From Halobacteriovoraceae bacterium (GTDB taxonomy: Bacteria; Bdellovibrionota; Bacteriovoracia; Bacteriovoracales; Bacteriovoracaceae), in NCBI GenBank assembly GCA_018663815.1, contig JABJPQ010000377.1:1-10081 (forward strand): a stretch of DNA of 10,081 nucleotides. The letters run 5' to 3'. How positions within the stretch are numbered: position 1 is the stretch's first letter; the number at the start of each line of letters is the position of its first letter. Under the pieces are notes generated by a model. That model had not been told where the DNA came from. It saw only the letters and a program-made list of their open reading frames with translations, and searched no databases. Below, in pieces: positions 1,330 to 9,667 of the stretch. The position numbers were made by a program, and so were the translations under genes.

Positions 1330-2844
1330 ATGAAGACAAGAAATTTATCCAAATCACAGTACTGTCGTGGGAAGAAGTGTAAAAAATCACTCTGGCTATA
1401 TCGCAATAAAAAAGAATTGGCAGACACACCCACTGAGTTTATGCAAAATATCTTTGATCAGGGTACGGCTGTTGGTGAACTAGCAACAGATGTTTTTGAA
1501 GAAGGGGTCTTGGTAGGTGAAGACTATACCGAGACTGAACAAGCCCTATCCAAAACTGAAATATTGGTTGCCCAAAACGTACCCGCTATTTTTGAAGCCG
1601 CTTTTATTTTTGAAAGTGTTCTTATAAGGGTTGATGTTTTAAGAAATAACAATGATGGTACTTGGGATCTTATCGAAGTAAAATCAACAAATAGCGTTGA
1701 GCCAAAGTCTCACCTTGATGATGCTGCAATTCAAAAATGGGTTCTTCTAAATTGTGGCATTATAATTAATAAGACAATCCTCATGCACTTAAACAGAGAG
1801 TATGTTCGTGAGGGTGATCTTAATCTCAAGGACCTTTTCGTTCTAGAAGATATCAGCGAAGCTATTCAGCCAAACTATGTCCTTATTGAAAATGAGTTGG
1901 AAAATATTAAAACACATATTTCGCTACCGAAAGAGCCTGAAGAGCTAATTGGAGCTAAATGTAAAAACCCTTATCTCTGTGATTTCAAATCATACTGTTG
2001 GGCTGAGGCACAGCCTGGAACTATACATACCCTTGGTAGAATCAGTGATAAAAAAAGACATGAATTAATGGATATGAGTGTTGCACTAATCGAAGATATT
2101 CCTGATAACTACAAGCTCTCTACTAATCAGCAGATTGAGACTTTGTCATATAAGAACAATGATACTCAAATAGATTTAAAAAATATTAACAATCATCTCA
2201 CTGAATTAAAATATCCTCTTTATTATCTTGATTATGAATCAGTGGCATATGCCGTTCCAAAGTTTGATGGGTCATGGCCTCATAAGCATTTGGTGACTCA
2301 ATATTCTCTACATATACAAGAGACTCCATCTTCAGAACTAATTCACAAAGAGTATTTGCATAATAAAAATACTGACCCCTCTCTGGCTATCACTGAGAGA
2401 CTACTTCAAGATATTAAAGATGATGGTGGGTCAATAATTGTTTACCACAAAACCTACGAGAGAGACAGAACTGGAGAGCTTGCAGCAATGCTGCCTAAGT
2501 TTCAAGATCAATTACACGGGTTGATTGACAGGATGTGGGACCTCGAAACACCTTTTACAAAAAGATGGTATTGGGATAAAGAGTTTAATGGATCAAGTTC
2601 TATAAAAAATGTGCTTCCAGTTTTTGCCCCTGAATTTTCTTATAATGATCTTGAAATAAAAAAAGGTGATACTGCTCAGATGAAATACGGAGAGATGGCA
2701 GAGCTGCCTGAAGAGTCTCAAGAGCGATTGCAAATCTACAATGCTCTTTTAAAATACTGTGAACGTGACACCTTGGCCATGGTTATTATTTTACAGAAGT
2801 TATTTGAAACCCTAAATTATGATCAAGATAAGGTTGCTGTATGA
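1330..2844 (+). CDS. Cas4/RecB-like nuclease fused to DUF2779 (DEDD exonuclease-like) domain
   Basis: A 504-aa protein. An in-frame TAA lies two codons before ATG 1330, so the start is at or after this point; the ribosome binding site is weak. The N-terminal half (about 1-230) is a PD-(D/E)xK nuclease of the Cas4/RecB type: Asp102 in RVDVL and Glu116/Lys118 in EVKST form the active site. Cys12 or Cys17 near the start and Cys211, Cys217 and Cys223 downstream match the split four-cysteine iron-sulfur cluster of this family. The C-terminal half (about 295-495) is DUF2779, with the hallmark PLYYLDYES, then a GSWPHKHLVTQYSLH stretch, VYHKTYER and YCERDT. The acidic residues Asp301, Glu303 and Asp480 resemble a DEDD 3'-5' exonuclease site. 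It is therefore probably a two-nuclease DNA- or RNA-processing enzyme. ATGA at 2841-2844 couples it to the membrane-protein gene. Confidence 0.85.
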   Translation: MKTRNLSKSQYCRGKKCKKSLWLYRNKKELADTPTEFMQNIFDQGTAVGELATDVFEEGVLVGEDYTETEQALSKTEILVAQNVPAIFEAAFIFESVLIRVDVLRNNNDGTWDLIEVKSTNSVEPKSHLDDAAIQKWVLLNCGIIINKTILMHLNREYVREGDLNLKDLFVLEDISEAIQPNYVLIENELENIKTHISLPKEPEELIGAKCKNPYLCDFKSYCWAEAQPGTIHTLGRISDKKRHELMDMSVALIEDIPDNYKLSTNQQIETLSYKNNDTQIDLKNINNHLTELKYPLYYLDYESVAYAVPKFDGSWPHKHLVTQYSLHIQETPSSELIHKEYLHNKNTDPSLAITERLLQDIKDDGGSIIVYHKTYERDRTGELAAMLPKFQDQLHGLIDRMWDLETPFTKRWYWDKEFNGSSSIKNVLPVFAPEFSYNDLEIKKGDTAQMKYGEMAELPEESQERLQIYNALLKYCERDTLAMVIILQKLFETLNYDQDKVAV

Positions 2845-3431
2845 TTGAAGCATTGGCGTTACATAGTGCACAGTTTGCTCTTACAATCGGAAAAGACCAA
2901 GCCGTTAAATATCTAAAGGGAAAGGTGGATCTAAAAGTCTTAGAAACTGTTCAAGCAAAAGTTGAACAGGAAATTAATCAGTTTGTACTTTCTATTCAAA
3001 AACGAACCATCGCTTACGTATCCCTCTCTGTTTTAAATCTTAGTTCTGCTGCCGCAGCACATAGCTGGTCAACAATGGCCTCCCTTAACTATATTGCTCT
3101 AATAATTTCTATTGGTTTTTTGGCCTTTATTATTTCCAATACAGTCAAAACCTTCACGGCTACAGTCGGTTATCTTGAAAATTTTGAAAACCACATAAAA
3201 TTATTGCTCACTGAAGAGTTTAAAAAAGCTAAAGAGAAAAACTGGAAGAATAAGCTCACCCTCCTTGTAAACTCAAAGGATGCACAAGACTACTACCACT
3301 TTGTTCTTGAGCAGATTGTTGAATCCTTCTCCGCCTGGTTAAGAAAAAATAAGAGCCTTCTTTATAGCAGATTAGCTTTTTACTTTATCGCATCTTTTTG
3401 TCTTACTCTCTCAATGAGAGGACTTCTGTGA
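2841..3431 (+). CDS. Hypothetical membrane protein
   Basis: A 196-residue protein of no family I recognise. It starts at ATG 2841 within an ATGA overlap with the stop of the DUF2779 nuclease gene, so translation is probably coupled. Residues 1-52 are soluble and helical. Hydrophobic segments lie at about 57-75 (a weak, alanine-rich one), 82-101 (strong: YIALIISIGFLAFIISN) and 172-192 (YSRLAFYFIASFCLTL). Between the second and third is a charged, lysine-rich soluble stretch of about 65 residues. It could be an inner-membrane anchor or effector working with the nuclease. The layout of a cytosolic enzyme followed by a small multi-span protein resembles many phage-defence operons, but no pore or enzymatic motif is visible. 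The last four bases overlap the GTG of the ASCH gene. Confidence 0.75.
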   Translation: MIEALALHSAQFALTIGKDQAVKYLKGKVDLKVLETVQAKVEQEINQFVLSIQKRTIAYVSLSVLNLSSAAAAHSWSTMASLNYIALIISIGFLAFIISNTVKTFTATVGYLENFENHIKLLLTEEFKKAKEKNWKNKLTLLVNSKDAQDYYHFVLEQIVESFSAWLRKNKSLLYSRLAFYFIASFCLTLSMRGLL

Positions 3432-3784
3432 AAGGATTAATTATCAAAAAAGTCCACCTTGATAATATCATCTCAGGTGAAAAGACATGGGAAATACGCA
3501 GCTCTAATACAAAAATTAGAGGTAAAATTGCACTGATTGAAAGTGGGAGTGGCACTGTTGTTGGCACAGCTTATGTCAGTGATTCCTTTGCTCTTACAGA
3601 TAAGGATCTACTAAAGAATATTGATAAGCATTTGGTCCCTAAAAAGAGTATTAAGGCTGGTTTGAGATATAAACGACCTCATGCTTGGGTGTTAACTAAA
3701 GCCAAGCGACTCAAAAAGCCAAAGCCATATAAGCACAAACAAGGTGCTGTAATCTGGGTAGAAATCGGAAATTTGAAAATCTAA
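3428..3784 (+). CDS. ASCH domain-containing protein (first copy)
   Basis: A 118-residue, single-domain ASCH protein (PUA-like beta-barrel fold). I chose GTG 3428 because AGAGGA at 3417-3422 lies five bases upstream and GTGA overlaps the stop of the membrane-protein gene. A TTG at 3398 would add ten residues with no homology. The family signature is GEKTWEIRS at residues 17-25, giving Lys19, Glu22 and Arg24 at the mouth of the barrel. It is followed by GTAYVSDSF and a final HAWVLTKAKRL...AVIWVEI strand pair. ASCH/PUA-like domains bind RNA or modified nucleobases, and the E. coli member YqfB hydrolyses N4-acetylcytidine. The residue aligned with the catalytic threonine of YqfB (Thr24) is Glu22 here, so the same chemistry should not be assumed. 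It ends the DUF2779 unit and precedes the radical SAM unit. Confidence 0.85.
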   Translation: MKGLIIKKVHLDNIISGEKTWEIRSSNTKIRGKIALIESGSGTVVGTAYVSDSFALTDKDLLKNIDKHLVPKKSIKAGLRYKRPHAWVLTKAKRLKKPKPYKHKQGAVIWVEIGNLKI

Positions 3785-3810
3785 TCACCGATGAACTCTG
3801 TTAAACAACG

Positions 3811-3853
3811 TTTGACACTGTAATGACTACACAAACCATATTTGACGTTGACG
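3811..3853 (+). repeat. TTTGAC/TTGACG direct repeats, candidate operator
   Basis: TTTGAC occurs at 3811-3816 and again at 3841-3846, exactly 30 bases apart (about three helical turns), and TTGACG recurs immediately at 3848-3853. An AACGTT palindrome sits at 3807-3812. The cluster lies just in front of, and overlaps, the -35 region of the promoter proposed for the ribbon-helix-helix gene. Ribbon-helix-helix repressors typically bind short tandem repeats and repress their own operons, so this is a plausible operator. Some of the repeats may simply be alternative -35 hexamers. Confidence 0.35.
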
Positions 3854-3892: not shown

Positions 3893-4090
3893 ATGTCCAA
3901 AACCAAAGGTATCCGGCTTTCAGATAGTGAAGAAAGGCTCGTTAACGAGTTTCTAAAGAAGAACCCTTTCTTCGACTTTTCATCAATGGCTAGAACCGCA
4001 ATATCTAAATTCATCGAAGATCCCCAAATAAAGCTTACCCCGATAAAAAGGACTAAGCGATATGATAGGGAGAACTCAAATGTCAGATGA
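3893..4090 (+). CDS. Ribbon-helix-helix-like DNA-binding protein, probable operon regulator
   Basis: A 65-residue protein. The start is ATG 3893, preceded by a strong GGAGG at 3883-3887 (five-base spacing). An in-frame ATG at 3842 lacks such a site and would begin upstream of the proposed -10 box. The sequence follows the ribbon-helix-helix plan: a short strand with alternating residues (KGIRLSD, about 4-10), helix A (EERLVNEFLKKN), a turn (PFFDFSS) and helix B (MARTAISKFIED), then a basic tail rich in Lys and Arg. Such proteins act as dimeric repressors, often of their own promoter. The gene overlaps the radical SAM gene by 11 bases and leads the unit, so regulation of that enzyme is the natural inference. 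An antitoxin role is possible, but no toxin partner is evident. Confidence 0.75.
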   Translation: MSKTKGIRLSDSEERLVNEFLKKNPFFDFSSMARTAISKFIEDPQIKLTPIKRTKRYDRENSNVR

Positions 4091-5543
4091 TAATATTAAT
4101 AACATGGAACTTAGAAATAACTCGGATAACGTCATAAGCTTTCCTCCACCATCTGATTCGATAACCTCAGGTTCCTCTAAATCAAAACTAAGTAAAGATA
4201 AAATCCCCACCCCAACATATGACAAACTCTTATCCGAAGGGGAAAAGCTAGATAAGTTATCAAAGTATAACTGTGAATTTGATTATTCCATATACAAAAA
4301 ACTTGAACAAAGATTTGCCCACAAGAATGTTCGTGGCGGTATCGTTAAAAATAATCCCATGAAATTAGTAAATTCACATCACTCCTGTCAGCAGTGCTTT
4401 TACGCCCTAGAAATTGACACCTACGGGAGAGGTTGTGTTCACAATTGCCTTTACTGTTATGCAAAGGCCGAACTTACTGTGCATGGATATTGGAACAACC
4501 CAATGCCTATGCCAATTAACATTAACGAAATCAGAAAGATGTTTTACACCGTTTTTGAAACAGATAAAAAGTCTAAGTGGAGAACCGTACTACAACAAAA
4601 AATTCCACTGCGAGTTGGGTGTATGTCTGACTCCTTTATGTGGATGGATCAAAAATATAAAGTTTCACAAGAGCTACTTAATATACTTAATTATTACGAT
4701 TACCCTTACACCATTTTAACTCGAAGTGACCTTATTGCTCGTGATGATTATTTAAATCTTCTTAATCCTTCGCTCTGCTCCGTGCAGTTTAGTATTGCTT
4801 CCACTAATGATAAAATGAATAAGCTTATTGAGCCGGGGACACCTTCTGCTAAAAGAAGATTAAAGGCGGTAGAGACCCTTTCTAAAGCAGGAATATGGAC
4901 AAGTGTTCGCATTAACCCGATCTTCCCAATCTATCCCGATGGCTATTATACTAACCCTGATTTCAAGTGGGATGGGCCAGTCCCTAAATTTGATTTTACC
5001 ACTTTTGAGATGGTGGATGAGATTGCTGCGACAGGGACCAAATCAATTATTGCTGGTTTTGGACGCTTCAGTTCCTTTGCCTTAAATAATATTGAGAAAG
5101 CTATTGGATTTAATCTCAAGCCATTTTTTAATAAAGATGATGTCAATAAATCAAGACGTGATTGGCATTTCAGCGATAAAGAGATTCGATATTATTATGA
5201 AGAGTTCAAAAGACGTTGTGATAAAGTTGGTGTTGAAAAGACCGTCTGCTATATTGGCAATGGTGAAGAGCATTTCTGGGGCCATCAAGACCTTTGGAGT
5301 AATAAAAAAGATTGTTGTAATATAAAAGATAGAATCGCTTCATTTAAATCTGACACACGACAAGTTCCTTTTGAAGAGAGGCTCAAGTTTACTACGCACA
5401 AATGTTCTAAAGCTATTAACCCTAAACGCCTCCATGAAGATGTTGGTGCATCACCTGAAAGTAAATCTGAAGTTTTCCTTAAATCAATAAAACCCCCGAA
5501 AGACTGGGAATCCAAAAATGATGAGCCTGAGGTAAATATCTAG
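4080..5543 (+). CDS. Radical SAM protein, spore photoproduct lyase-like (COG1533) family
   Basis: A 487-residue enzyme. ATG 4080 follows AGGGAGA at 4067-4073; an ATG six codons earlier has no better site. The cluster motif is GRGCVHNCLYCYA, with Cys119, Cys123 and Cys126 (C-x3-C-x2-C) binding the 4Fe-4S cluster that cleaves S-adenosylmethionine. RVGCMSDSF (178-186), YTILTRSDLIARD (210-222), VQFSIAST (235-242) and the RINPIFP strand (277-283) match the spore photoproduct lyase/COG1533 core. This group includes DNA-lesion repair enzymes and many members of unknown substrate. The protein is much longer than a typical SplB of about 340 residues: it has a Ser/Asn-rich, probably disordered N-terminus, an extra C103-x2-C106 just before the core, and a C-terminal extension with Cys390, Cys412, Cys413 and Cys442. 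The downstream ASCH gene overlaps its stop codon. The substrate is unknown. Confidence 0.88.
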   Translation: MSDDNINNMELRNNSDNVISFPPPSDSITSGSSKSKLSKDKIPTPTYDKLLSEGEKLDKLSKYNCEFDYSIYKKLEQRFAHKNVRGGIVKNNPMKLVNSHHSCQQCFYALEIDTYGRGCVHNCLYCYAKAELTVHGYWNNPMPMPININEIRKMFYTVFETDKKSKWRTVLQQKIPLRVGCMSDSFMWMDQKYKVSQELLNILNYYDYPYTILTRSDLIARDDYLNLLNPSLCSVQFSIASTNDKMNKLIEPGTPSAKRRLKAVETLSKAGIWTSVRINPIFPIYPDGYYTNPDFKWDGPVPKFDFTTFEMVDEIAATGTKSIIAGFGRFSSFALNNIEKAIGFNLKPFFNKDDVNKSRRDWHFSDKEIRYYYEEFKRRCDKVGVEKTVCYIGNGEEHFWGHQDLWSNKKDCCNIKDRIASFKSDTRQVPFEERLKFTTHKCSKAINPKRLHEDVGASPESKSEVFLKSIKPPKDWESKNDEPEVNI

Positions 5544-5932
5544 TGGCGAAAAAAGAATATTCTGGGATTAACATACAGTGGCCAATATCTGAGCTAATTC
5601 TGACTGGTAAAAAAACTATTGAAACACGTACGTACCCAATCCCAAATCATTATCTAAATAAGGAAATGATTCTAATAGAAACCCCTGGCAAAAAAGGGAA
5701 TTTTAAATCAAGAATGAGAGGAATTATTCTCTTTACAGATTGTTTTGAATACGAAAATAAATCAGCTTTTTATAAGGACTCTAAAAAACACTGTGTAACC
5801 CCAAATTCAGAATGGGCTTGGATCGACAAACCTAAATGGGGCTGGAAGGTTGAAATAAAAAAACTTTTCCCTAAACCTCTCCCTCTTCAAAAGAGAGCAG
5901 GGATAAAATTTTCTCGGGGAATATTCCTTTAA
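5543..5932 (+). CDS. ASCH domain-containing protein (second copy)
   Basis: A 129-residue ASCH (PUA-like) protein. The GTG at 5543 shares its first base with the TAG stop of the radical SAM gene (TAGTG), and TGAGGT at 5528-5533 provides a ribosome binding site, so translation is tightly coupled. The signature GKKTIETR at 22-29 places Lys24, Glu27 and Arg29 as in the first ASCH protein. Next come a MILIETPGK strand, RMRGIILFTDCFEY, and a tryptophan-rich WAWIDKPKWGWKVEIKKL pair near the C-terminus that could stack on a base. The two ASCH proteins share the motif but little else, so they are distant paralogs, not a recent duplication. A role as partner, reader or downstream hydrolase for the radical SAM product is inferred from coupling only. 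It ends tail-to-tail with the restriction gene. Confidence 0.85.
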   Translation: MAKKEYSGINIQWPISELILTGKKTIETRTYPIPNHYLNKEMILIETPGKKGNFKSRMRGIILFTDCFEYENKSAFYKDSKKHCVTPNSEWAWIDKPKWGWKVEIKKLFPKPLPLQKRAGIKFSRGIFL

Positions 5933-8900
5933 GCAGCTTCCTTAAGCTCCTCCTCTAGAGTAAATCCAATATTTCCATCATAAAACTTTTCAACTCTAAG
6001 GATATCTTCTCGTGAAAGGTTATATATTTTATAAACTTCATTATTCAAATCATCAAAATTTGAAACACCTGAATTATTTTTAATTAACTTTCGAACAATT
6101 TGAGTAATAAATGAGCTCTCCCTTGACGTTGGACTTTTAATTGGTATTTCGGATAGAGGTTTCTGATAAAGCTCAAGCATTTCTCCCTTTCGCTTTCCCT
6201 TGAAATATAACCACATATAATAAAGTTTGGAATTGAGAACACCTAATAGATAGTAGAGATCAAGGTTTGTACTCTTTTTTGCCGTTATAAAATAAACATC
6301 TGCTGAAGCGTACCATTGAACATCATTATACCCAAAAGTATTTACCCTGCTTCTTTGAGGTGCAACGATTTTAGGGCCACTAAAGTCTATAGCAGTTTTC
6401 GGCAGAGCCATCACATCCCAGCGTCCACGCTTCAAGGCCCCCTTAAGCGAGTTATCCTTCCTATTCTTTAGCTTGTCTTTATGTTCAGCTAGATACTTCA
6501 TAATATTAGGAATATCTTCTCTCTTGTATGGGGCTTTCTCATAGTGATATATTACTGAGCGTTTATTAGTGGTTTCAGTACTAAACTTTCTTACATCCGA
6601 ATTTTTAAACAGCGGCAATATGATATCTTTTTCTATCTTATTCATTTTGATGAGCCTTTCTAGCTCACCCTTAGCATGTATAAAAACATTATCACATGCT
6701 GTGAACAGTCCCGTGTTGACATTTACTTCATCACCTAAACATAAATCTGATATATTTGAAATCTGGCAAAGTATTTCATCATAAGCACTAACTATTCGAA
6801 TGTATGACTCATTAGATTCGAATCTACCTAGCAGCTTGGCAGATTGAACTTGCTCCTTGAAATATTCCTTTTCAAAATTCTTATTCTTAGGGATATTAAT
6901 AGCACTGATAGCATCACAGGGCCCCCCTCTTTCTAAGATGCTAATCATATTATGTTGCCCCGAAGCGGATTCAAATACCTTATTTTCATTTAATTGGATA
7001 AGAGCCAGGCTCGACGCTCTCTCCTGCAAATCGATTCTAAGTACTCTAGCTCCTGCCGCCGTTGGAAAGTAATTTGTTGTAATAAACCCAAGCCTCCCTT
7101 TGGGAGCTAGCATATCTAACCCTAGGTGGAAAAAAAAGTAAAAGTAATCCATTTTACCTTGGTAATACTTACTTAACCTACCTCCCTTTACGTCTTCAAA
7201 AAGATGCTTATTTCCTTTTTCTCCAATATATGGAGGGTTTCCTACTACGGCACTAAAGCCAGAGTCCATAATATTTTTGTATTCAGGCCAAATGGTTTCT
7301 TCAACTAAAGCATTAGAGTTTATTAATTGATCATCTAGTCGCTCTAATTTTTTTCCCCAATGGGCACTTTCTAACCACAAACTCATCTTAGCAAGTTTTA
7401 CAGCTCTAGGATTGATATCCACGCCAAAAATACATTTATCTAATACTACACGCTTTGCTTCTTCTTTTGATGGTATATCAGCACTAAGCTGTTCATCCTC
7501 AAGAGCTTTCAAATAATATGAGGTAAGGAAATTTAGTGCCCCTATCAGAAAATGTCCGCTACCCATTGCCGCATCACACACTTTAACTTCGAGAAGCTCC
7601 TTGCTATTTTTACCCTCGCAAATTGAAGTAAGAGTTTCCTTTATAATATATTGAACAATAAAATCGGGTGTATAATAACTTCCCGTAGCCTTTCGTTCAG
7701 CATTATCCGGTGTGAAAAAGGCTTGGCCGACTTTTACTATCGGCTCAAATCCTTTTAATTTATTTTGAATGGATGCCGTTAGTTTCATCCACTGTTTATA
7801 TTTACCTTTTTTTAGGTAAACCATTGGCTCCTTGGCTATACCCAATTTGTACTCTAAAAAACTTTCATATATAGATCCAAGTTGCCGTGGTGTAAAATAA
7901 TTGTACGGAATTTGCTGGTAATTTCTTTGCAAGAAAGCACTTGCTTTTGAATAGCCTAATTCAAAAAATATCCGAACCATTTGTTCATCTGTCAGACAAT
8001 GTTTTTTGGCAAAAACACATTCCGTGTCCGAAAATATATTTTCCCTAAATCCCTTAATTTCAAACCCAAAATCATCTTTCTTAGCACCATCATGGATTAC
8101 CTCTGTTAGTCTTATTAGATTTTTGTATAATGCATGGCCATCTGGTTTGAACTTGTGTGACCGAAGACTTTTTGAAAGTCGCATATTAATATATTCCCTG
8201 TCTTTCTTGGCAATATACTTTTCAGGATCAAATACAGATATTCTGTCAATAATGCTTGTTAAGCTAATTTCATAATATTTCGGGGATTTTGTAGGCAAAA
8301 CGCCTCTGGCCTCACATGACTTAATAAATAAGATATTGAAAAGATGGCTTTCTGCAACAGTTCTAATAAGTTTTAAATCTTCATCTGTAGGCTTCGTTAT
8401 TGTGCCCTTCTCTTTAGCAGCCTTAAGAAGACCGTCACAAGTTATATTCATAGCAGAAATAAAGCGGTCTTTTAAATCTTCCTCGATACTATCAATATAC
8501 TTACGGCTTTCTTTAAGAACTTCATCTAGAAATATTTTTCCAACATCATCCTTTACATAGGATGCCTTACCAAAGAATAAATAAAAATATTTTGCATTCT
8601 CCAGGAATTCGACGTCATCAACTTCACCTGATTCAATCTTAGCCTCTTGAGATAGTAAACTCTCAATTTTGAACTCGAAACACCTCTCTGGTGACTCACC
8701 AGAAATGTCATTATTTACAAGCCGCCAAATATTACCATCAGTTACAATCCCCCATTTTTTGTGGAGGATGTTCATGTAATTTAATACTTGTTCATTGAAA
8801 GAGGTTGCTACTCCAGTATCATCAGTTTCCTTATTGGCCCTTCTTTTATCTTCCTTAATTTTACTCTTTTCCTTTTCGACAATACGATTCCAGTACTTGG

Positions 8901-9441
8901 CCTCGAGAGGTGCTATACAGTGCTCCCTAGCCTCTCTCTTCCGTTTTTCAGTGTCATCTGAATCACTTATGAAACTTGCTTCAGCTGGATAATTAACGAG
9001 AATCATATCTGTTCTATATGTTTTGTTTCTAGGCTTTGCTTTCACTGTAAAAGAAGTTTCCGCAGCATACGGCTCCTCTACATTATTTGAACAGTTATCA
9101 TACCATCCTAAGGCATCTAAAAGTGGGGCGATCATTTTTGTTATTGTATCAGTTTCACTTAATTTCTTTTTGGACAAGCCTCTTAGGCTTTCTGCAATAT
9201 TACGGAATTCATTATAAAAATGATAAAAACCAGATTTTATACTCTCACCTTCATCATCAAATACAACGTCATCATAATCTTTATCCCACTTCTCAGAAAA
9301 ATCTCTTTTCAAATCATTGCCAAGGTAAACTTTTGAAAAAAGTGTGCTCTCCCAATACGCTATATTCCGTAGAGAACTGTTTAAGTCTAGCTGCATGTTT
9401 TCCTGTTCATCAGATTTATTATTCAAGTTGTTCGCTAACAT
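5929..9441 (-). CDS. Type IIG restriction-modification enzyme (Eco57I-like, single chain)
   Basis: A 1170-residue enzyme combining endonuclease, adenine methyltransferase and target recognition. ATG at 9441-9439 is preceded by GGAG (9452-9449). The N-terminal region carries a PD-(D/E)xK nuclease site: RTDMILVN with Asp145 and APLEAKYW with Glu180/Lys182. After a long helical linker comes the methyltransferase: GSYYTPDFIVQYII (587-600, motif X), CDAAMGSGHFL (622-632, motif I binding S-adenosylmethionine), FGVDINPRAVKLA (672-684) and NPPY (735-738, catalytic motif IV of N6-adenine methylases). The C-terminal part (about 905-1105) resembles a TaqI-like specificity domain: GLFTACDNVF, ILPLFKNSDVRKF, PKIVAPQRSR and LLGVLNSKLYYMWLY. 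No helicase domain is present, and the nuclease site separates it from BREX PglX. It appears full length with all key residues intact. The recognition sequence cannot be read from the protein. Confidence 0.9.
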   Translation of the reverse strand: MLANNLNNKSDEQENMQLDLNSSLRNIAYWESTLFSKVYLGNDLKRDFSEKWDKDYDDVVFDDEGESIKSGFYHFYNEFRNIAESLRGLSKKKLSETDTITKMIAPLLDALGWYDNCSNNVEEPYAAETSFTVKAKPRNKTYRTDMILVNYPAEASFISDSDDTEKRKREAREHCIAPLEAKYWNRIVEKEKSKIKEDKRRANKETDDTGVATSFNEQVLNYMNILHKKWGIVTDGNIWRLVNNDISGESPERCFEFKIESLLSQEAKIESGEVDDVEFLENAKYFYLFFGKASYVKDDVGKIFLDEVLKESRKYIDSIEEDLKDRFISAMNITCDGLLKAAKEKGTITKPTDEDLKLIRTVAESHLFNILFIKSCEARGVLPTKSPKYYEISLTSIIDRISVFDPEKYIAKKDREYINMRLSKSLRSHKFKPDGHALYKNLIRLTEVIHDGAKKDDFGFEIKGFRENIFSDTECVFAKKHCLTDEQMVRIFFELGYSKASAFLQRNYQQIPYNYFTPRQLGSIYESFLEYKLGIAKEPMVYLKKGKYKQWMKLTASIQNKLKGFEPIVKVGQAFFTPDNAERKATGSYYTPDFIVQYIIKETLTSICEGKNSKELLEVKVCDAAMGSGHFLIGALNFLTSYYLKALEDEQLSADIPSKEEAKRVVLDKCIFGVDINPRAVKLAKMSLWLESAHWGKKLERLDDQLINSNALVEETIWPEYKNIMDSGFSAVVGNPPYIGEKGNKHLFEDVKGGRLSKYYQGKMDYFYFFFHLGLDMLAPKGRLGFITTNYFPTAAGARVLRIDLQERASSLALIQLNENKVFESASGQHNMISILERGGPCDAISAINIPKNKNFEKEYFKEQVQSAKLLGRFESNESYIRIVSAYDEILCQISNISDLCLGDEVNVNTGLFTACDNVFIHAKGELERLIKMNKIEKDIILPLFKNSDVRKFSTETTNKRSVIYHYEKAPYKREDIPNIMKYLAEHKDKLKNRKDNSLKGALKRGRWDVMALPKTAIDFSGPKIVAPQRSRVNTFGYNDVQWYASADVYFITAKKSTNLDLYYLLGVLNSKLYYMWLYFKGKRKGEMLELYQKPLSEIPIKSPTSRESSFITQIVRKLIKNNSGVSNFDDLNNEVYKIYNLSREDILRVEKFYDGNIGFTLEEELKEAA

Positions 9442-9442
9442 A

Positions 9443-9667
9443 TTAAAGCTCCATAGATAATTTGGTTACGTGCCGTGCAAATTCATCATCAAGAACCTGA
9501 ACTTTAACTTTCTGATTTTGTTTTAGAGTTTTACGTTTTTTATTTGAATCAATTGCTGAATAATGGACGTAGTAGTTCTTTCCATTCTCTGCTCTTATAA
9601 CCCCTTCGCCGGAGCCATCATTAAACCACGAAACCTCACCCATCTTCCATTTCACTGAAGCACTCAT
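9443..9667 (-). CDS. Cold-shock-domain-like small protein preceding the restriction gene
   Basis: A 74-residue single-domain protein. ATG at 9667-9665 follows GAGAGAGG (9683-9676) eight bases upstream. It fits the cold-shock OB fold: GEVSWFNDGSGEGVI, then GKNYYVHYSAI (RNP2-like), ending with KVKVQVLDDEFARHVTKLSM. The usual RNP1 motif KGFGFI reads SGEGVI here (19-24), so two stacking aromatics are replaced by Glu21 and Val23, while Trp14, Phe15, His35 and Tyr36 remain. It should therefore bind single-stranded nucleic acid less strongly than CspA, or with altered specificity. Only one base separates its stop from the restriction-modification start, and the downstream GGAG lies inside its last codons, so the two genes are almost certainly translated together. 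A role in setting restriction expression is inference. Confidence 0.8.
   Translation of the reverse strand: MSASVKWKMGEVSWFNDGSGEGVIRAENGKNYYVHYSAIDSNKKRKTLKQNQKVKVQVLDDEFARHVTKLSMEL

What the first reader, a model, noticed from the sequence alone, without database searches (positions are those of the whole stretch)
3893..5932. RHH regulator, radical SAM enzyme and ASCH protein as one translationally coupled module
Three genes overlap in series (11 bases, then TAGTG) behind their own candidate promoter. The enzyme belongs to the spore photoproduct lyase-like group, whose best-known member acts on damaged DNA bases. The partner has a PUA-like fold that in other proteins binds or hydrolyses modified nucleobases. 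A second ASCH gene ends only 108 bases upstream. I know of no described pathway with this composition. A reasonable inference is an enzyme that makes, removes or senses a modified nucleotide (in phage or host nucleic acid), with the ASCH protein as reader or second-step enzyme.
Basis: partly seen in the sequence, partly recalled or inferred. Interest (0 to 1): 0.75.

Follow-up and report, generated by a model that had tools for sequence, protein, structure and literature searches.

The report
Radical enzyme module riding restriction systems
In predatory bacteria related to Bdellovibrio, a small regulator, a radical-chemistry enzyme and a base-binding protein travel as one cassette beside many different DNA restriction systems, so they may alter or read the chemical marks those systems use; what they do has not been tested.

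Summary
RHH (3893-4090), radical SAM (rSAM, 4080-5543) and ASCH (5543-5932) overlap as described. rSAM and ASCH are adjacent in 38 of 38 non-redundant loci; RHH lies upstream in 24 of 31 testable ones. A two-site operator-like motif precedes the module in 17 of 33 loci (shuffle mean 0.1).

The module's 3' end usually abuts restriction-modification (RM) genes of at least five kinds: 35 of 38 loci hold an RM-like gene, against 0 of 20 control regions. The tree forces repeated partner changes. All 31 partner methyltransferases that could be typed are amino (N6A/N4C) enzymes.

ASCH keeps EOLA1's GxKxxExR motif but lacks YqfB's nucleophile, so it is more likely a reader than an amidohydrolase. The rSAM has the spore photoproduct lyase fold plus five further invariant cysteines; it is not shown to be a lyase.

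Best guess: an RM-linked module acting on aminomethylated bases; chemistry untested. Ten literature searches found no description. So far seen almost only in Bdellovibrionota.

The parts
3800..3816 (.). operator-like site GTTAAACAACGTTTGAC: two GTNNNAC half-sites 10 bp apart
   Evidence: only match in the window; same pattern upstream of rSAM in 17 of 33 loci, shuffled mean 0.1, maximum 2. Outside the module 4 sites in 492,475 bp, control regions 2 in 240,020 bp. The pattern was chosen after looking at these same sequences.
3893..4090 (+). ribbon-helix-helix-like small protein, probable autoregulator
   Evidence: ATG with GGAGG. Pfam DUF6290 17.8 bits, below its cut-off of 27. Homologs by HMM in 24 of 38 loci, 24 of 31 with at least 500 nt upstream.
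4080..5543 (+). radical SAM enzyme, 487 aa: CX3CX2C at 119/123/126 plus invariant C103, C106, C390, C412, C413
5543..5932 (+). ASCH-b, 129 aa, GxKxxExR motif (G22 KKTIET R29), likely modified-base reader
5929..9441 (-). convergent partner: type IIG-like restriction enzyme-methyltransferase (NPPY), 1170 aa; its stop overlaps the ASCH-b stop
   Evidence: PADLOC REase_MTase_IIG 160.7 bits; motif; 10 of 12 homologous places in the phylum stand beside the module
9443..9667 (-). cold-shock-domain protein in the partner operon
   Evidence: Pfam CSD 37.2 bits; homologs in 12 of 38 loci (cluster C4)

Best explanation
A mobile RM accessory module. Shown by sequence: RHH, rSAM and ASCH-b form one overlapping unit with its own conserved operator-like site, attached to and exchanged among RM systems whose methyltransferases are of the amino type. 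Inferred: RHH represses its own operon through the 3800-3816 site. ASCH-b flips out and holds an aminomethylated base, most likely N6-methyladenine made by the partner methyltransferase. The rSAM then uses a 5'-deoxyadenosyl radical, with an auxiliary Fe-S cluster held by some of the five extra cysteines, to oxidise or otherwise tailor that base or its methyl group. This would change the mark, or stop foreign DNA from using it as a passport, independently of the kind of nuclease in the partner system. The chemistry and the substrate (DNA, RNA or a nucleotide) are inferred, not shown.
For: rSAM-ASCH adjacency in 38 of 38 loci, rSAM-ASCH junction usually a 4-base overlap. RM-like genes in 35 of 38 loci, 0 of 20 control regions. 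25 of 28 convergent neighbours end within 60 nt of the ASCH stop, 21 of 28 within 10 nt (counted). At least five RM kinds. Starred branches force at least 5 changes for IIG, 4 for type III-like, 4 for McrBC partners (34 rows). Amino-MTase motif IV or Pfam amino-MTase in the partner of 31 of 38 loci, no C5 enzyme as immediate partner, although C5 enzymes occur in 125 of 126 genomes of the class. The relation is partly reciprocal: 10 of 12 places with a window-like IIG enzyme have the module. ASCH-b has K24, E27, T28, R29 at the spacing of EOLA1's K21, E24, T25, R26 and lacks YqfB's catalytic Thr24. Reviewers quote a prediction that ASCH domains read 6mA (passage in PMC11037411). Module rSAMs are more basic than their non-module paralogs (median charge +8.5 against -3, p 8e-5).
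Against: No substrate or activity was tested. Amino-MTases dominate IIG and type III systems anyway, so the amino bias may only mirror the partner kinds; the background mix of RM systems was not measured. The nearly universal C5 gene of the class may be a core orphan, a poor control. Paralogs without ASCH keep all eight cysteines and lie near carbamoyltransferase, aminotransferase and GDSL genes, which suggests small-molecule chemistry for the wider family. The basic charge is ordinary for these loci (47 other ORFs of 380-550 aa: median +3, upper quartile +10), and ASCH pI 9.8 is near the background 9.1. Phage contigs carry the same ASCH without the rSAM, and 3 of 74 of those loci have an amino-MTase-like ORF. 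L113 has an RCC1-repeat protein instead of an RM gene, L105 no RM gene seen.
Confidence: 0.36

Rival explanations
1. Counter-counter-defence: the rSAM strips or alters protective base modifications in phage DNA, guided by ASCH-b, so that any RM partner can cut it again.
For: Explains why the partner can be any RM kind and is exchanged. ASCH/PUA-like folds scrutinise modified bases (passages). Phages carry the same ASCH subfamily.
Against: No direct evidence. Nothing ties it to C5-type RM partners, which would profit equally.
Confidence: 0.18
2. Toxin-antitoxin or abortive-infection unit guarding the RM system: RHH as antitoxin and repressor, rSAM/ASCH as a toxin acting on RNA or nucleotides when the RM system fails.
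For: Small RHH first, overlapping genes and an operator are the usual layout of such operons (recalled); an ASCH protein from Zymomonas is an ssRNA nuclease (stated in PMC6803910, passage).
Against: RHH was not found in 7 of 31 loci with enough upstream sequence (in one of these, L097, the rSAM ORF is cut short); an antitoxin should not be dispensable. No toxin of this composition is known to me.
Confidence: 0.17
3. The rSAM makes or modifies a small molecule, free nucleotide or protein (as viperin makes ddhCTP, or as peptide maturases do), and ASCH-b handles the product; the RM link is co-location.
For: Eight cysteines shared with paralogs in biosynthetic contexts; viperin-like and peptide-maturase structures are among the lower structural matches.
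Against: Nearly constant, end-to-end attachment to RM genes and repeated partner exchange are hard to explain by co-location. The partners share no common protein that could be the substrate.
Confidence: 0.17
4. Passenger of defence islands with no functional link to the RM systems.
For: Defence islands collect unrelated systems (recalled). A DUF2779 gene also recurs (10 of 38 loci, 0 of 20 controls).
Against: Adjacency is immediate, not just in the same island, and window-like IIG enzymes have the module in 10 of 12 places.
Confidence: 0.12

Closest known systems
Spore photoproduct lyase (SPL, TIGR04070)
   Different: 16.8 bits against a cut-off of 400; eight invariant cysteines instead of the three of the cluster (that SPL needs only the cluster plus one hydrogen-donor Cys is recalled); paired with ASCH
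PA0069-family radical SAM (NF033668)
   Same: best NCBIfam match, 96.9 bits over residues 58-284
   Different: far below the cut-off of 360; function of that family not known to me; no paper holds both 'PA0069' and 'radical SAM' in the library
EOLA1/CXorf40A and other ASCH proteins
   Different: bacterial, stand-alone partner of an rSAM; no ligand known
E. coli YqfB ac4C amidohydrolase
   Different: catalytic Thr24 (PMC6972931, passages) is Glu27 in 38 of 38 bacterial and 53 of 53 viral rows
RM systems with stand-alone ASCH or EVE accessory proteins
   Same: ASCH beside an RM system; described for type I RM, mostly in archaea (passage of PMC7641849)
   Different: here a fixed rSAM-ASCH pair with its own regulator and several non-type-I RM kinds; that paper's single radical SAM mention is a cobalamin-dependent enzyme near EVE

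Membership tests
Radical SAM superfamily | CX3CX2C cluster motif and Pfam score above cut-off | tested here: met
   PF04055 40.2 bits, cut-off 29.5; C119, C123, C126 in 33 of 34 rows, the other a gap
Spore photoproduct lyase | score above TIGR04070 cut-off | tested here: not met
   16.8 bits against 400
Spore photoproduct lyase | hydrogen-donor cysteine (Cys140/141, recalled) | not tested
   no residue-level alignment of that region was obtained
PA0069-family rSAM (NF033668) | score above cut-off | tested here: not met
   96.9 bits against 360
ASCH superfamily | GxKxxExR motif and ASCH fold | tested here: met
YqfB-type amidohydrolase | Lys-Thr-Glu triad with Thr nucleophile | tested here: not met
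   by motif spacing Thr24 is replaced by Glu27 in all rows (residues from PMC6972931 passages)
RHH/DUF6290 | score above Pfam cut-off | tested here: not met
   17.8 bits against 27; RHH fold itself not modelled
Type II toxin-antitoxin system | antitoxin gene always accompanies the toxin gene | tested here: not met
   RHH found in 24 of 31 testable loci
Type II toxin-antitoxin system | toxicity neutralised by the first gene product | not testable with these tools
   needs expression
Restriction-modification system (partner, not module) | DNA methyltransferase plus restriction component beside the module | tested here: met
   PADLOC/Pfam hits, RM-like gene in 35 of 38 loci; cleavage not tested

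The most novel reading that the evidence does not exclude
An RM-independent epigenetic tailoring module: a radical SAM enzyme that rewrites the aminomethyl marks laid by whatever RM system it is plugged into, with an ASCH protein reading the mark. It would be the first radical-chemistry tailoring of N6-methyladenine or N4-methylcytosine in bacterial DNA known to me, and phages would carry the same reader as a counter-measure.
Probability: 0.25. Interest if true: 0.92.

Novelty: new variant of a known kind. Interest (0 to 1): 0.7.

Why it matters
RM systems are the commonest bacterial defence, and their accessory parts are few. A fixed radical SAM-ASCH pair that plugs into IIG, type III-like, McrBC-type and helicase-type RM systems suggests a shared, still unknown step in how these systems mark or inspect DNA. 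It makes the open question whether ASCH domains read adenine methylation directly testable, in a cultured predator (Peredibacter starrii carries the module) and in E. coli K-12. If the enzyme changes a base, it would be a new DNA modification chemistry.

Tried and rejected
Rejected: ASCH-a (3431-3784) and the 196-aa protein before it as module parts. In one search the 196-aa protein matched nothing else, and ASCH-a matched only ASCH-b genes of six other loci (24-28% identity). BLASTP of ASCH-a against ASCH-b gives E 0.10.

Rejected: the photolyase function as a conclusion. Rejected: the YqfB reaction. Rejected: a sigma-70 promoter (0 found).

Led nowhere: rSAM in viral contigs by one sequence (none) and by alignment (61 stretches, none confirmed). 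rSAM in plasmids and phages gives only distant hits covering at most 47%. ASCH-b in INPHARED phages and PLSDB: none. PDB sequence searches with the rSAM gave weak matches only, the top ones to designed armadillo repeats by short stretches, and none by phmmer. PHROGs on ten viral proteins: six with a hit at any level, one useful.

Breadth: one further family outside the phylum was searched with the ASCH profile, 1 of 128 genomes, the one already known; its 5.8-kb contig (L014) may be misbinned. The genome-contig scan used words of one sequence and finds close relatives only, so absence from other phyla is not shown.

Limits of the counts: the 38 loci are the 34 strong ASCH matches plus L005, L009, L010, L014. 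Of the 14 loci, 8 were dropped as duplicates by equal contig length (L003, L004, L006-L008, L011, L013, L016), and L012 and L015 stand for two G genomes. In the tree four loci with short rSAM pieces were left out (L050, L107, L113, L117), and partner labels were set by me; partner type is still mildly clustered on the tree (17 changes, shuffled mean 20.4, as low in 2 of 200). The HMMs were built from the partners, so 35 of 38 is circular on that side; for L101 the counted hit is another ORF, although its own partner has NPPY and ResIII, and the L014 hit is weak (E 6.6e-4). The 20 control regions were placed by me at round coordinates in eight module-bearing genomes, and one of them has an ORF with an [DN]PP[YFW] motif. 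The searches scored only two or three candidates per genome, so they are lower bounds; besides two helicases with the module, five places in four genomes at 30-45% identity come from genomes without a strong ASCH match.

Full report
What is in the window. Downstream and convergent stands a 1170-aa type IIG-like enzyme (5929-9441, minus strand) whose stop codon overlaps the ASCH-b stop, and a cold-shock protein.

The pair is fixed. With the rSAM as query, 14 loci of other genomes were fetched, and in 15 of 15 including the window the ASCH-b gene follows. In 129 genomes of the class the rSAM query hit 21 genomes and ASCH-b 10. The full-length rSAM places at 432 bits or more have ASCH-b; the seven between 373 and 282 bits do not. 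With the ASCH-b profile, 34 of 368 genomes of the phylum matched: 30 genomes with 34 places at 139 bits or more, four genomes below 30 bits. All 34 strong places have the rSAM just upstream. Together with four loci from genome contigs this makes 38 loci and 38 of 38 adjacent pairs. The junction is usually a 4-base overlap. RHH is found by HMM in 24 of 38 loci, 24 of the 31 with at least 500 nt upstream.

A conserved control site. Upstream of the module 17 of 33 loci contain GTNNNACNNNGTNNNAC, against a mean of 0.1 and a maximum of 2 loci in 200 shuffles. It is rare elsewhere in these loci (4 in 492,475 bp) and in control regions (2 in 240,020 bp). In the window it is at 3800-3816 and occurs once. 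The pattern was read off the same sequences, so the count is descriptive. No site was seen at the RM promoters, so the RM operon seems to be controlled separately (inference).

The partner is an RM system, and it changes. The next gene after ASCH-b is convergent in 28 loci, codirectional in 9 and beyond the contig in one. Of the 28, 25 end within 60 nt of the ASCH-b stop and 21 within 10 nt. By my grouping: IIG-like alone 14 loci, methyltransferase with McrB- and McrC-like genes 6, type III-like or N6_N4 methyltransferase 6, Eco57I-type methyltransferase with a giant DEAD/MZB helicase 4, methyltransferase with ResIII 1, other N6-type enzymes 3, unclear 4 (L014 and L100 at contig ends, L105, and L113 with an RCC1-repeat gene). 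HMMs made from the partners hit 35 of 38 module loci and 0 of 20 control regions of the same genomes. On a tree of 34 rSAMs, well supported branches force at least 5 changes for IIG, 4 for type III-like and 4 for McrBC partners; partner type is nevertheless mildly clustered. In reverse, window-like IIG enzymes (E 1e-60 or better) occur at 12 places in 11 of 368 genomes. Ten have the module, one stops at a contig end just where the module would lie, and one lacks it. The type III Res of L102 was found in 3 genomes, all with the module. The giant helicase's two close copies have the module; five diverged places in four genomes do not.

Amino methylation. In 31 loci the partner methyltransferase carries an amino-type motif IV or a Pfam amino-methyltransferase hit. 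No immediate partner is a C5 enzyme; L051 has one C5 enzyme upstream of RHH. C5 enzymes are present in 125 of 126 genomes of the class, though mostly one per genome, possibly an orphan core gene. Because IIG and type III enzymes are amino-type anyway, this is suggestive only.

Viral relatives. 74 IMG/VR contigs encode relatives of ASCH-b. 71 were recovered as ORFs, and the 53 distinct rows keep the invariant residues. None of these loci has the module's rSAM (HMM E 1e-5). Whether the phage proteins oppose the module or serve another purpose is open.

Literature. Ten searches found no paper describing the rSAM-ASCH pair or its RM link. Of eight papers I saw passages only; the rest were seen as listings. 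The library holds open-licence papers only.

Verdict. Real, conserved and, as far as I could search, undescribed. The RM link and partner exchange are well supported; the mechanism is inferred. I call it a new variant of a known kind (an RM system with an accessory module), with the categorical reading left open.

Noticed in passing
L147-L220 (uncultivated virus contigs): 74 phage-like contigs carry a stand-alone ASCH with the same invariant residues as ASCH-b and no module rSAM nearby.
   Followed up: partly
window 1330-2844: DUF2779 protein; homologs recur in 10 of 38 module loci and in 0 of 20 control regions. Possible extra nuclease of the defence island.
   Followed up: partly
window 3431-3784 and 2841-3431: A second, unrelated-looking ASCH gene and a 196-aa protein before the module, not conserved with it.
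   Followed up: partly
G000:C129 (L050): A second copy of the module in the same genome, its rSAM cut by the contig start, again convergent to a IIG enzyme with two cold-shock genes.
   Followed up: yes
window 9443-9667 and 12 of 38 loci: A cold-shock-domain gene heads the IIG operon, a possible regulator of the RM genes.
   Followed up: no
L058-L064: Paralogous rSAMs without ASCH in conserved chromosomal clusters, with carbamoyltransferase, SxtJ, GDSL, aminotransferase and QueC-like genes in L060.
   Followed up: partly
L204:1666-2595: Phage protein near ASCH with endonuclease VII and Lar-like restriction-alleviation matches.
   Followed up: no
G000:C252:169-912 (L145): A separate protein of the spore photoproduct lyase group in the same genome, 106 bits to TIGR04070, below its cut-off of 400.
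   Followed up: no
L097, L102, L104: A 113-120-aa protein of unknown family sits between the type III Res gene and ASCH-b in all three of these loci (cluster C21).
   Followed up: no
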